Under the pieces are notes generated by a model. That model was not told where the DNA came from. It was given only the letters and a program-made list of their open reading frames with translations, and ran no database searches. A program made the translations under genes and the position numbers. From positions 1 to 21,965 of the IMG/VR virus record IMGVR_UViG_3300025640_000067: 21,965 bases of DNA; one strand, written 5' to 3'. Shown here piece after piece: positions 10,488-19,722 of the stretch. The stretch is from a virus. Each line of letters starts with the position of its first letter. Position 1 is the stretch's first letter.

Positions 10488-10519
10488 CAAAGATACCATG
10501 TCGCAATGTCGATTTCAAA
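10488..10519 (-). promoter_or_regulatory. groEL promoter with internal CGACAT direct repeats
   Basis: On the minus strand a -33 TTTG (10519-10516) is followed after 20 nt by a perfect -7 TATCTTTG (10495-10488), the Bacteroidota TTTG-N19/20-TAnnTTTG pattern. The start codon lies only 7 nt past the -7 box, so the transcript should be leaderless or nearly so. The spacer holds two direct repeats, CGACATTG and CGACATGG, which also occur elsewhere in the flanking region; a protein bound there would block or reshape the promoter. Confidence 0.75.
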
Positions 10520-10672
10520 CGCCCCTATAGAGAGAGAGAGAGAGAGAGAGAGAGAGAGAGAGTCTTGTATACAAGGAATAATAATTGACATTTCCGACAC
10601 TGTAACTGAAAACCAGCAACTTAGCCGTACACAAACTGGAATAAAACCGGTATGAAACCGACATTAGTGTCG
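10495..10672 (+). promoter_or_regulatory. control region copy 1: (AG)n with inverted AATGTCG/CGACATT motifs
   Basis: Order on the plus strand: ACCATGTCG-x-AATGTCG, a CCTATAG junction, an (AG)17 tract, a 12-bp palindrome CTTGTATACAAG (10564-10575), GACATTTCCGACACT (10587-10601) and CGACATTAGTGTCG (10659-10672). The same order recurs at 19563-19722 before the primase gene. Motifs left of the AG tract are inverted relative to those right of it, giving a dyad on a scale of about 100 bp. This fits a replication origin or an operator cluster for one phage protein; which one cannot be settled from sequence. Confidence 0.6.
10529..10562. repeat. (AG)17 dinucleotide microsatellite
   Basis: An uninterrupted 34-nt AG run, 49 nt upstream of the groEL start, preceded by CCCCTAT. 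The corresponding run at 19597-19610 has only 7 units and is preceded by GCCTAT; a third run of 6 units at 11026-11037 lies in the same intergenic region. Such a tract is prone to slippage and also forms polypurine/polypyrimidine structures. It lies just upstream of the -33 box of the groEL promoter. Confidence 0.9.
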
Positions 10673-10691
10673 ATTTTGCCCGAACACAAGA

Positions 10692-10715
10692 GCACCCCGG
10701 ACGTTTCCGAGGTGC
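10692..10715. other. inverted repeat, possible terminator or protein site
   Basis: GCACC-c-CGGA, four-base loop CGTT, TCCG-a-GGTGC: a ten-position stem with one C/A mismatch in the middle. No T-run follows on either strand, so intrinsic termination is doubtful. It sits between the CGACAT control region and the GC-rich part of the intergenic segment and could separate the two divergent transcription units. Confidence 0.4.
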
Positions 10716-10719
10716 CCCA

Positions 10720-11209
10720 CCTTAACCAAATTGCTCGCACTTGTCTGCTCGCAGAGGGAAGGTAACCTTTTCAAAACAGGTGTATGGAGTGTTTGGGTTC
10801 AATACCATCTGACGCGCTGACCCCGCTCGGGGAAGTCGATTTGTTTTCGATAGGGGGGGTCGCGGTTGGGTTCCCCCGTCCGGACTTTTTGCCGTTTTGC
10901 TGTGGCAGTCCTGCCCGCCCCCGTCCGGCTCGGTCAACGAGCCACGGCCCCGGCCCCTGTCCCCTGCCCCGGCCCCATGGCCGTGAATCGCCACGCAGTC
11001 CCCGCCCCTGCCCCTGTCCCTGCAAAGAGAGAGAGAGGGGGGCGCACCCGCCCCTTAACCCCCGCCCCTTGCGGTTGACGTGTTAACGTGTGGCCCTCCG
11101 GCCCTGATTCGTCCTGCTGTCTTGGTTTGGCGCGAAATAAAATTTACCCCGCTCTACCCCGCCAATGCTCAGTTCTTCGATTAATGCAAAAGAAATCTTC
11201 GCTCTGTGC
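10720..11209. other. gene-free GC-rich segment of the divergent control region
   Basis: I find no credible gene here: frames on both strands read through low-complexity Pro/Arg/Gly sequence. Contents: a CCCCG-CT-CGGGG hairpin near 10820, a G7 run at 10853-10859, the first GGCTCG palindrome (10927-10943), a block of imperfect C-rich repeats of the CCCCTG/CCCCGG type (about 10944-11022), an (AG)6 run into G6 (11026-11042), and C-rich sequence to about 11070. The strand bias (C-rich on plus, G-rich on minus) could allow quadruplex formation on the minus strand or favour R-loops. Just right of it lies the 11.2 kb promoter. Confidence 0.6.
10926..10944 (+). repeat. GGCTCG palindrome, copy 1 (intergenic)
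   Basis: C-GGCTCG-GTCAA-CGAGCC-A. A six-base perfect stem around a five-base NTSAN centre, with the invariant 5' C and 3' A seen in all seven copies. It lies in the GC-rich intergenic segment, about 340 nt before the first early gene. Confidence 0.85.
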
Positions 11210-11239
11210 TTGTTTATTGAAAAGGTTGTTGTATCTTTG
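11210..11239 (+). promoter_or_regulatory. early promoter (-33 TTG, -7 TATCTTTG)
   Basis: TTG at 11210-11212, a 19-nt spacer, then TATCTTTG at 11232-11239: an exact match to the Bacteroidota consensus TTG-N19-TAnnTTTG. Transcription would begin around 11244-11247, giving a leader of about 40 nt that contains CAAATACAGT just before the ATG at 11285. It is the best candidate for the main rightward early promoter. Confidence 0.8.
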
Positions 11240-11284
11240 GAGTCCCGGAGGACACAAACCCCCCTCCCAAATACAGTACACATT

Positions 11285-11500
11285 ATGAGTCAGCACATCA
11301 CCAACGCAGTAGACAGCTTGATTGCATCTCAGGACGTAGAGGCCATCACCTTCACCATCGAATGGGTCGAGACGAGAAAGCAATCCATGCTCGAGGCGAT
11401 AGCCGGCGAGCCTGATGAGGAGCAGGCGGTGGCTTATGCCATCTCAATTTCAGAGATAACGAGGGGCGTTGCTCGTCTCCGCTCTGCATTGGTCTGCTGA
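11285..11500 (+). CDS. hypothetical early protein (71 aa)
   Basis: The first gene downstream of the 11.2 kb promoter. I chose ATG 11285 (MSQHITNAVDSLIASQ) because it follows the CAAATACAGT leader element by 7 nt; in-frame codons further upstream lie before the predicted transcript start. The product is largely helical and acidic, with no cysteine cluster or membrane segment, and ends ARLRSALVC. I do not recognise it. The stop codon is followed after 2 nt by palindrome copy 2, and its last 39 nt may form the 5' side of a tRNA-like fold. Confidence 0.7.
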   Translation: MSQHITNAVDSLIASQDVEAITFTIEWVETRKQSMLEAIAGEPDEEQAVAYAISISEITRGVARLRSALVC

Positions 11501-18519: not shown

Positions 18520-18767
18520 GTGATAACAAAGACAGGGTCTACGCACCCGCCATGAATTGGTCCGCACCTCGTGACGAGGCACCCGACTTCATCAAAGCCA
18601 AGGTCGGCATCAAGGTCGAAGAGTTCGTTGCCTTCCTTCAGGAGAACGCCAAGCCCTCGGGTTGGATAAACTTCGAGATGAAGGAGAGCCAAGACGGACG
18701 CTACTACTTCGAGCTCGACATGTGGGAGCCGAAGGCTAAGGTCGAGGAAGACGAAGCCCCATTCTAA
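18516..18767 (+). CDS. small protein with SSB-like acidic tip (83 aa)
   Basis: A beta-rich protein with DFIKAKVGIKVEEFVAFLQ (24-42), WINFEMKESQDGRYYFELDMW and a C-terminus ending EEDEAPF. The D/E-rich tail closing in Pro-Phe is the hallmark of SSB C-terminal tips, which bind RecQ, exonuclease I, primase and other partners. The body lacks a clear full-length OB fold at 83 aa, yet the small beta-barrel-like pattern would allow a reduced one. It is coupled by ATGA to the exonuclease gene. A role as a phage SSB or an SSB mimic in replication/recombination is inferred. Confidence 0.7.
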   Translation: MSDNKDRVYAPAMNWSAPRDEAPDFIKAKVGIKVEEFVAFLQENAKPSGWINFEMKESQDGRYYFELDMWEPKAKVEEDEAPF

Positions 18768-18800
18768 TGGGGTCAGCCTGATACATCCGTACTCCATCAG

Positions 18801-18842
18801 GCGAGGGGAAGAGGGGGCAACGGCCCCCTCTTTCTTCCTCGC
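18801..18842 (+). terminator. strong intrinsic terminator
   Basis: An eight-pair GAGGGGGC-AACG-GCCCCCTC hairpin (18811-18830) is followed by TTTCTT. Outside it GCGAGG (18801-18806) can pair with CCTCGC (18837-18842), extending the structure. It lies 34 nt after the 83-aa gene and closes the replication/recombination transcript. Confidence 0.85.
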
Positions 18843-18858
18843 ACAAATACAATTAACT

Positions 18859-19089
18859 ATGAAACCAGTAAATACAAAAAGCCTTTTTCATGTCCTGTGC
18901 GCGACTCTTGAGAAGTTAGACAGCGCAGAGATTAACGTCAACCAAGCGTCAGCCACGGCCAAGTTGGTCGGTCAGTGTACCAACCTGCTCAACTACGAGC
19001 TCAAGCGTGCCGCGCTGATGACCAACGACGACTTCCGCCATGCTCACCGAAATTTGGAGAGCAAGAACTTTGATAGCCTACCGGAATGA
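18859..19089 (+). CDS. conserved phage protein (76 aa, helical)
   Basis: Starts MKPVNTKSLFHVLCATLEKL. The pattern LEKLDSAEINVNQASATAKLVGQ then LLNYELKRA is, from memory, a recurring small family in Bacteroidota phage replication regions, with a helical coiled body and no catalytic residues. ATG 18859 follows a CAAATACAAT leader element by 5 nt, directly after the terminator. It is coupled by ATGA to the next gene. Confidence 0.8.
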   Translation: MKPVNTKSLFHVLCATLEKLDSAEINVNQASATAKLVGQCTNLLNYELKRAALMTNDDFRHAHRNLESKNFDSLPE

Positions 19090-19559
19090 TTGAGTACGAG
19101 GAGTTCCTTTGTGAGCAGGATTACGAGGAGTGGTGGGAGCATCCTGAAGTGATGGAAATACACAAAGAGTTTTGCTCATTTCTTGAGGATGGCAATTACC
19201 GTGACCTACCTGCGCACTGGATAAAATACAGTGGTCACACAATTGCCCTTTCATCGGGCAATACGTATGACTTCTACAGACGAGGCATCACACAACAAGA
19301 AGCTGAGTTGCTTGCCATACAGTTTCTGGACAATAGGCTGGACAGGATGACGAAGTACCTGAGGAGAATGCGGAACCTTGCTCGCAAGCACAACGTGGAG
19401 GACATGAGTGACTACGAGAGGCACTGGTTCTTTCGCAAGAAAGCACGAGCGCCATGGTGGCCAAAGGGTGACTATGACTACCATGCGGGGGAGTACAGAA
19501 TATTCAGCTACCCCTTGCGTCTTCTGAACACCAATCGACTGAAAAACTACGGACAATAA
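19086..19559 (+). CDS. hypothetical protein (157 aa)
   Basis: Starts MIEYEEFLCEQDYEEWWEHP, strongly acidic for 40 residues, then turns basic with NRLDRMTKYLRRMRNLARKH (about 103-122) and Trp/Tyr-rich APWWPKGDYDYHAGEYRIF. No transmembrane segment. I do not recognise the family. The acidic-then-basic layout may reflect protein-nucleic acid contact. It ends just before the second control region. Confidence 0.7.
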   Translation: MIEYEEFLCEQDYEEWWEHPEVMEIHKEFCSFLEDGNYRDLPAHWIKYSGHTIALSSGNTYDFYRRGITQQEAELLAIQFLDNRLDRMTKYLRRMRNLARKHNVEDMSDYERHWFFRKKARAPWWPKGDYDYHAGEYRIFSYPLRLLNTNRLKNYGQ

Positions 19560-19562
19560 AAG

Positions 19563-19722
19563 ACCATGTCGGAATGTCGGTTTTCCTCTGGCCTATAGAG
19601 AGAGAGAGAGAATACTCTACTTTTCTTTTCTCCTACATACATACAAGAAGAATCGACATTATCGACACTAAGACTGAGTATCAATAAGTTAACTATAATA
19701 AACCGACACAAAAACCGACACA
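19563..19722 (+). promoter_or_regulatory. control region copy 2 before the primase gene
   Basis: Order: ACCATGTCGGAATGTCGG, CCTATAG, (AG)7 (19597-19610), T/C-rich stretch, TACAAGAAGAAT, CGACATTATCGACACT (19654-19669), TATAAT (19694-19699) and CCGACACA twice, 12 bp apart (19703-19710, 19715-19722). It matches copy 1 at 10495-10672 in order and orientation. No TTG/-7 pair of the Bacteroidota type is visible for rightward reading; the TATAAT and CCGACACA repeats sit next to the primase start. Candidate origin of replication or shared operator. Confidence 0.6.

What the first reader, a model, noticed from the sequence alone, without database searches (positions are those of the whole stretch)
10495..19722. 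Duplicated control region: (AG)n tract flanked by inverted AATGTCG / CGACATT motifs beside groEL and before the primase
10495-10672 and 19563-19722 share ACCATGTCG-x-AATGTCG, CCTATAG-(AG)n, TACAAG and CGACATT-x2-3-CGACACT in the same order and orientation, though they serve genes on opposite strands 9 kb apart. The inverted motif sets about an AG tract resemble the iteron-plus-unwinding design of origins, or paired operators of one regulator. Copy 1 also overlaps the groEL promoter.
Basis: partly seen in the sequence, partly recalled or inferred. Interest (0 to 1): 0.7.

Follow-up and report, generated by a model that had tools for sequence, protein, structure and literature searches.

The report
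Paired phage replication-origin-like DNA elements
A group of uncultured viruses that probably infect Bacteroidota bacteria carries two matching ~160-base DNA elements, one beside the groEL gene and one before the DNA-copying primase gene, built like replication start sites (repeated protein-binding words around an easily melted stretch), and the binding words tend to change together in both copies from one virus to the next.

Summary
The two segments (G copy 10495-10672, P copy 19563-19721) align far above chance even with the AG tract masked, and the arrangement recurs in relatives. The complete circular relative MW202828.1 has exactly two copies, same orientation, 10.9 kb apart: one beside groEL, one ending just before the primase; other ~60 kb relatives agree (about 8-12 kb apart). 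Anatomy: inverted iterons (TGTCG x2), CCTATA plus a microsatellite whose unit varies between viruses, AT-rich DNA, two iterons (CGACAY), a block matching the IHF consensus WATCARNNNNTTR, two more iterons. The iteron core differs between viruses (CGACA, CAACA, CGTCA, AAGCA) and tends to match in both copies of one genome. Distant relatives of the primase-helicase, including two on Salinibacter plasmids, also have iteron arrays beside the gene, with other sequences. Best explanation: iteron-type replication origin modules read by the phage primase-helicase, working like P4/PICI origins; the G copy is the more constant. Binding and origin activity are not shown and the reader protein is inferred. 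In this virus the left-arm iterons also lie inside a groEL promoter, so groEL repression is likely too. New variant of a known kind.

The parts
10495..10672 (+). G copy of the element, between groEL (minus strand) and the early region
10488..10495 (-). groEL -7 box TATCTTTG (Bacteroidota TAnnTTTG)
   Evidence: box present in 28 of 31 relatives, 2.9 expected
10516..10519 (-). groEL -33 TTTG; the two left-arm iterons lie in the 20-nt spacer
   Evidence: sequence; spacer 20 found for the near-identical L053
10499..10511 (-). left-arm iterons TGTCG-N3-TGTCG (CGACA on the minus strand)
10524..10562 (+). CCTATAG plus AG microsatellite (17 units)
   Evidence: position conserved in relatives
10564..10575 (+). 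palindrome CTTGTATACAAG
10586..10600 (+). right-arm iterons TGACATTTCCGACAC
10611..10623 (+). IHF-like block AACCAGCAACTTA (one mismatch to WATCARNNNNTTR)
   Evidence: class
10659..10672 (.). terminal inverted iteron pair CGACATTAGTGTCG
19563..19721 (+). P copy of the element, ending 4 bases before the primase start codon
19567..19579 (-). left-arm iterons TGTCG-N3-TGTCG
19592..19611 (+). CCTATAG plus AG microsatellite
19612..19652 (+). T-rich, low-stability stretch (candidate unwinding region)
   Evidence: element holds 60-mers in the least stable 0.1% of the window
19653..19668 (+). right-arm iterons TCGACATTATCGACAC
19679..19691 (+). IHF consensus block TATCAATAAGTTA (exact)
19703..19721 (+). 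second right-arm iteron pair CCGACACAAAAACCGACAC
19726..21963 (+). primase-helicase (BT4734-like N, PriCT-1, DUF5906), cut by the window end; proposed reader of the iterons
8939..10480 (-). phage groEL, next to copy G
16914..17201 (+). stand-alone DnaA domain IV protein (alternative or auxiliary reader)

Best explanation
Each element is an iteron-type replication origin module. Proposed mechanism (inferred): a phage initiator, most likely the PrimPol/PriCT-1/DUF5906 primase-helicase through its C-terminal winged helix, binds the inverted sets of CGACA-type iterons; an IHF/HU-family protein bends the DNA between the iteron pairs; the AT-rich and microsatellite stretch between the arms melts; the helicase part is loaded and the primase part makes primers. 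The G copy beside groEL is the more constant origin. The P copy before the primase is a second origin or a helper site acting with G (as crr does with ori in P4) and may autoregulate the primase. In this virus the left arm of copy G would also repress groEL. Shown: arrangement, conservation, two copies per genome, iteron variants shared between copies, low duplex stability, iterons adjoining distant primase-helicases including plasmid ones.
For: Conserved arrangement in relatives. Exactly two copies in the complete circular podovirus MW202828.1 and two in six further ~60 kb records by profile, one weakly. Iteron words more alike between G and P of one genome than between genomes: cosine 0.634 vs permuted 0.411, z 7.3, 35 genomes; rare variants shared by both copies, e.g. 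TCGTCA in G024, AAGCAT in G033/G034. IHF consensus in 59 of 79 distinct elements vs 1.08 expected from shuffles. The stretch between the arms is among the least stable DNA of the genomes; microsatellites are about 100-fold enriched there (12 in ~2 kb vs 31 in ~509 kb). Related primase-helicases on plasmids pSR14 (14.9 kb) and pSR31 (31.6 kb) have inverted iteron sets directly 3' of the gene, GGTCCA and TGTCAC. A bacterial MAG contig with a 48% identical primase shows the same layout with GGACA iterons and an IHF-consensus block. The C-terminus of a relative's primase models as a winged helix; the P4 origin-binding domain 1ka8 is among the best matches (Z 5.4, 73 residues, 3.4 A). [quoted passage not shown]
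Against: No binding or replication data. Covariation of iterons with primase, DnaA-like and other proteins was inconclusive. Non-iteron words also match between copies of one genome (z 5.2), so part of the concordance is composition or kinship. The IHF block is one homologous block found with a profile that contains it; a chance match in one lineage is of the order of 1%, not astronomically small. Winged-helix matches are generic: 1ka8 is tied with unrelated rows and no Foldseek E-value is below 0.1. The GC-skew minimum near copy G coincides with gene divergence. Some genomes (G031, G032) lack the P copy.
Confidence: 0.7

Rival explanations
1. Transcriptional operators only: both copies are binding sites of one phage regulator that times groEL (late genes) and the primase (early genes), with no role in replication.
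For: Both copies sit upstream of genes; in this window the left-arm iterons lie in the spacer of the groEL promoter; a small protein of unknown family (8010-8474) annotated 'repressor protein' in MW202828 is conserved near groEL.
Against: Copy P holds no host-type promoter box (2 of 32 vs 4.1 expected); in most relatives copy G lies upstream of, not on, the groEL promoter; operators do not need a melting region, a position-conserved microsatellite or an IHF block; iterons adjoin distant primase-helicases on plasmids where groEL is absent.
Confidence: 0.2
2. Same origin reading, but the iterons are read by the stand-alone DnaA domain IV protein rather than the primase-helicase.
For: The gene is in 18 of 18 well-flanked relatives; AATCGACA resembles part of the DnaA box TTATCCACA (my comparison); the DnaA signature residues DH are changed to AV in this virus.
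Against: CGACA and CAACA viruses share the same recognition-helix sequence NHSSIHHGI; bacterial contigs with distant primases have iterons while six of the seven genomes searched show only one or more ordinary DnaA-type hits and no matching short protein near the primase, though MAGs are incomplete.
Confidence: 0.2
3. A recombination or packaging site (attP-like or pac/cos-like) rather than an origin.
For: Iteron-IHF-iteron layout also occurs in phage attachment sites (general knowledge); a tRNA-Arg gene follows copy G in several relatives.
Against: Two copies fixed at the same two genes in all relatives with both; iterons follow the primase gene, not an integrase or terminase; no integrase was seen in the annotation of MW202828.
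Confidence: 0.06
4. Recent duplication or chance similarity without function.
For: The AG tracts alone inflate the visual likeness.
Against: Masked alignment far above chance; both copies conserved over wide divergence with changing iteron sequence.
Confidence: 0.01

Closest known systems
Bacteriophage P4 origin system (alpha protein, ori and crr)
   Same: A primase-helicase with a winged-helix domain that binds repeats at the origin, then unwinds and primes (PMC4234260, citing Ziegelin and Lanka 1995 and Yeo 2002); two cis sites in one genome (ori and crr, general knowledge; 'two replicons' in Tocchetti 1998, cited in PMC6092414).
   Different: Here the primase is of the archaeo-eukaryotic PrimPol type, not Toprim; iteron sequence differs; each copy is a full module with an IHF-consensus block and a microsatellite; the virus is a ~60 kb podovirus, not a satellite.
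PICI / SaPI pri-rep-ori modules
   [quoted passage not shown] 2 legend).
   Different: PICI ori follows the pri-rep genes; here the element precedes the primase and a second copy lies beside groEL.
Iteron plasmid origins that use IHF and DnaA (R6K ori gamma, pSC101)
   Same: Iterons, AT-rich region, IHF and DnaA involvement there (PMC5043065); these phages have an IHF-consensus block and encode DnaA domain IV proteins.
   Different: No RepA/pi-type initiator was identified; iterons are short 5-6 nt words in inverted sets.
pRN1 plasmid replicon
   Same: Replication protein with primase, helicase and winged helix (PMC4234260).
   Different: The pRN1 origin has a stem-loop and no iterons (PMC4234260).

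Membership tests
Iteron-type replication origin | Several short copies of one binding word in direct and inverted sets | tested here: met
Iteron-type replication origin | AT-rich, easily melted stretch between or next to the repeats | tested here: met
   both copies among the least stable 2.4% of 60-mers in 8 of 9 sequences; one G copy at 8.8%
Iteron-type replication origin | Linked to its initiator gene | tested here: inconclusive
   copy P abuts the primase-helicase and distant relatives keep iterons beside the gene; that this gene is the initiator is inferred
Iteron-type replication origin | Initiator binds the iterons | not testable with these tools
   needs a binding assay; covariation was inconclusive
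Iteron-type replication origin | Supports autonomous replication / is where replication starts | not testable with these tools
   GC-skew minimum 0.3-1.2 kb from copy G in 8 complete or near-complete genomes is compatible but confounded by gene direction
P4-family primase (TIGR01613) | Score above the curated cut-off | tested here: not met
   16.3 bits against 108.7 for relative L014; not listed for the window's truncated primase
P4 alpha-like initiator | C-terminal winged-helix origin-binding domain | tested here: inconclusive
   model of relative L004 (pLDDT 81, pTM 0.57); 1ka8 at Z 5.4 among many generic winged helices
IHF site | WATCARNNNNTTR | tested here: met
   copy P exact, copy G one mismatch; 59 of 79 distinct elements; binding not tested
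Bacteroidota-type promoter at copy G | TTTG, about 20 nt, TAnnTTTG upstream of groEL | tested here: met
   met in this virus (L053 100% identical GroEL); -7 box in 28 of 31 relatives but paired TTTG in only 4

The most novel reading that the evidence does not exclude
A podovirus lineage replicates from two coupled PrimPol-read origins about 8-12 kb apart (a P4 ori/crr-like two-site arrangement inside a ~60 kb virus), one of which doubles as the groEL operator; and the unwinding region contains a simple-sequence tract whose position is conserved while its unit is not ((AG)n, (CT)n, (TAG)n, (TA)n), possibly renewed by slippage at the initiation site.
Probability: 0.3. Interest if true: 0.75.

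Novelty: new variant of a known kind. Interest (0 to 1): 0.55.

Why it matters
Replication origins are known for very few Bacteroidota phages. This gives a compact candidate origin for a broad, uncultured group, a testable initiator (a PrimPol-type primase-helicase), and a natural series of iteron variants that could be used to map which protein residues read which DNA word. If the two-site reading holds, it extends a scheme known from the satellite P4 to a much larger virus and links replication to chaperonin expression.

Tried and rejected
Chance likeness: rejected. RNA element: no Rfam match in the window; a weak hairpin before the right arm is seen in P copies (mean z -1.3) but not in G copies (-0.4), so it is not a shared feature. 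Host-type promoter inside copy P: not found. Naming the iteron reader by covariation (partial Mantel tests on primase windows, DnaA-IV, Sak, exonuclease, helicase, a second DnaA-like protein): weak, mutually similar signals, nothing decisive; primase residues 1-60 and 81-140 were nominally best (p about 0.015 before correction for 20 windows). GC skew: minimum lies by copy G, but gene direction explains it equally well. TIGR01613 membership: not met. Solved-structure sequence search of the primase: no meaningful hit. Literature searches found PICI, P4, R6K and pRN1 origins but no description of this element; subscription papers are mostly not held.
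Full report
WHAT THE WINDOW IS. The window is a whole virus record of 21,965 bases, a fragment. It encodes a phage groEL on the minus strand (8939-10480), a minus-strand block of other genes, and a plus-strand early region with a stand-alone DnaA domain IV protein (16914-17201), a Sak-type annealing protein, an exonuclease and a BT4734-like/PriCT-1/DUF5906 primase-helicase cut by the window end. The nearest annotated genome is MW202828.1, a complete circular 60,850-base podovirus from Manatee Spring. Marine Bacteroidetes phages with groEL are known from metagenomes (PMC5332604), but I did not test whether this group is theirs.

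THE OBSERVATION. The two segments are real repeats. With AG tracts masked the local alignment scores 91, against 33.9 +/- 5.6 for shuffles (max 60) and at most 49 for 1050 other pieces of the window. Reading left to right: two TGTCG words; CCTATAG and the AG tract; AT-rich DNA; two CGACAY-type words; a 13-base block; two more words. In copy 1 (G) the right half is degenerate: TGACATT for CGACATT, and one mismatch in the 13-base block. Copy 2 (P) is close to canonical and ends 4 bases before the primase ATG.

CONSERVATION. I fetched 50 loci for the primase and 80 for groEL from viral contigs and read the upstream DNA. A profile of the right arm finds the element before the primase in 37 of 45 loci and near groEL in 62 of 80 (my count, E<=0.1). 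MW202828.1 has exactly two: 42712-42783 beside groEL and 53650-53717 before the primase. Of the other ~60 kb records examined, six have two by profile (one weakly, G008) and G001 has one clear and one that is recognisable by eye. Both copies always have the same orientation; distances run from about 7.9 to 11.6 kb. G031 and G032 have lost the P copy but keep a G copy with an IHF-consensus block and TCGTCA-type iterons, which is why I call G the more constant one.

ITERONS CHANGE TOGETHER. The core word is CGACA in most viruses, CAACA, CGTCA or AAGCA in others. In 35 genomes with both copies, the words of G resemble those of the P copy of the same genome more than those of other genomes (cosine 0.634 vs 0.411 permuted, z 7.3); non-iteron words show a smaller excess (0.532 vs 0.416, z 5.2), so composition and kinship contribute. 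Rare variants are shared by both copies of one genome (G024, G033, G034; G001 shares TGACGCGGTGACAG). This is what a single DNA-binding protein reading both sites would produce.

THE 13-BASE BLOCK AND THE TRACT. The block fits the IHF consensus WATCARNNNNTTR in 59 of 79 distinct elements; shuffles give 1.08. These are homologous copies found with a profile that includes the block, so for one lineage the chance is of the order of 1%. In favour, the N positions are the variable ones, and a distant contig (L146) has a different sequence that still fits. The microsatellite sits at the same place but with different units; such tracts are about 100 times denser there than elsewhere in nine sequences (12 vs 31). 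The stretch between the arms holds some of the least stable 60-mers of each genome.

BEYOND THIS GROUP. A search of bacterial genomes with a primase alignment found more distant relatives. L146 (48% identical primase) has TGTCC-type inverted words, an AT-rich stretch, TTGGACAAATTGGACAT, an IHF-consensus block and a second TGGACA pair: the same layout with other words. L147, L150 and L158 have CAACAC-type words. A whole-genome search of these MAGs finds DnaA_C hits that are the ordinary long DnaA in five of the seven, with extra hits in two. Two Salinibacter ruber plasmids, pSR14 (14.9 kb) and pSR31 (31.6 kb), carry relatives about 33% identical over the helicase half, and directly 3' of the gene lie inverted word sets: GGTCCA (six forward, three reverse) and TGTCAC (five forward, five reverse in the array). 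On these plasmids the array next to the primase-helicase is the natural origin candidate.

MECHANISM. The best explanation is an iteron-type origin opened by the primase-helicase with help from an IHF/HU protein. The C-terminal 165 residues of a relative's primase (L004) model as a helical part followed by a winged helix (pLDDT 81, pTM 0.57). Foldseek gives only weak winged-helix matches; VIA-align places the P4 origin-binding domain 1ka8 at Z 5.4 over 73 residues, tied with unrelated winged helices. This agrees with, but does not prove, an origin-binding domain. P4 alpha binds origin repeats with a winged helix, then unwinds and primes (PMC4234260); PICI origins have two iteron sets flanking an AT-rich region (PMC6092414); R6K and pSC101 origins need IHF and DnaA (PMC5043065).

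TRANSCRIPTION. In this virus the groEL promoter (minus strand TTTG, 20 nt, TATCTTTG) encloses the two left-arm iterons of copy G, so binding there should block groEL. The -7 box is general (28 of 31 relatives, 2.9 expected), but a matching TTTG was found in only 4, and in most relatives the element lies further from the start. Copy P has no such box on its sense strand (2 of 32; 4.1 expected). So operator function is likely an addition at copy G here, not the conserved role.

GC SKEW. In eight complete or near-complete genomes the cumulative GC-skew minimum lies 0.3-1.2 kb from copy G. Gene direction diverges at the same place, so this is compatible with an origin there but not evidence that separates the models.

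VERDICT. New variant of a known kind: the parts are those of iteron origins, but the pairing beside groEL and before a PrimPol-type primase, the IHF block within the iteron array and the position-conserved, unit-variable microsatellite were not found described in the papers I could search.

Noticed in passing
window 10927-15682: Seven copies of a 17-base palindrome GGCTCGNTNANCGAGCC (none expected), some inside reading frames (12016 and 15666, in frame); outside the window's own DNA only single copies in relatives L003/L232 (same genome) and L058.
   Followed up: partly
window 12535-12602 and 15350-15417: Two 68-base blocks 81% identical, each just upstream of a start codon, with TTTGCACAG/CTTGCACAG and TACATTGCAC: a duplicated promoter-like sequence.
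   Followed up: no
window 16914-17201; L134 30107-30676: Stand-alone DnaA domain IV proteins without the ATPase part; relatives often encode two different ones.
   Followed up: partly
window 8010-8474: A lone plus-strand gene inside the minus-strand block, found in 96 fetched loci near groES/groEL and annotated 'repressor protein' in MW202828; no Pfam family above cut-off.
   Followed up: partly
window 5437-7223: Four tandem paralogous segments about 540 bases apart, probably repeated structural or receptor-binding genes.
   Followed up: no
L071, L061, L073, L110, L016, L082, L084, just beyond copy G: A tRNA-Arg (TCT) gene lies directly after the G copy in several relatives; L061 has tRNA-Leu and tRNA-Ile as well. 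The window has no tRNA gene.
   Followed up: partly
L243 4754-5134; L244 2398-2818: Salinibacter ruber plasmids pSR14 and pSR31 carry iteron arrays next to a primase-helicase together with a terminase family gene and parA, as if they were phage-plasmids or satellites.
   Followed up: partly
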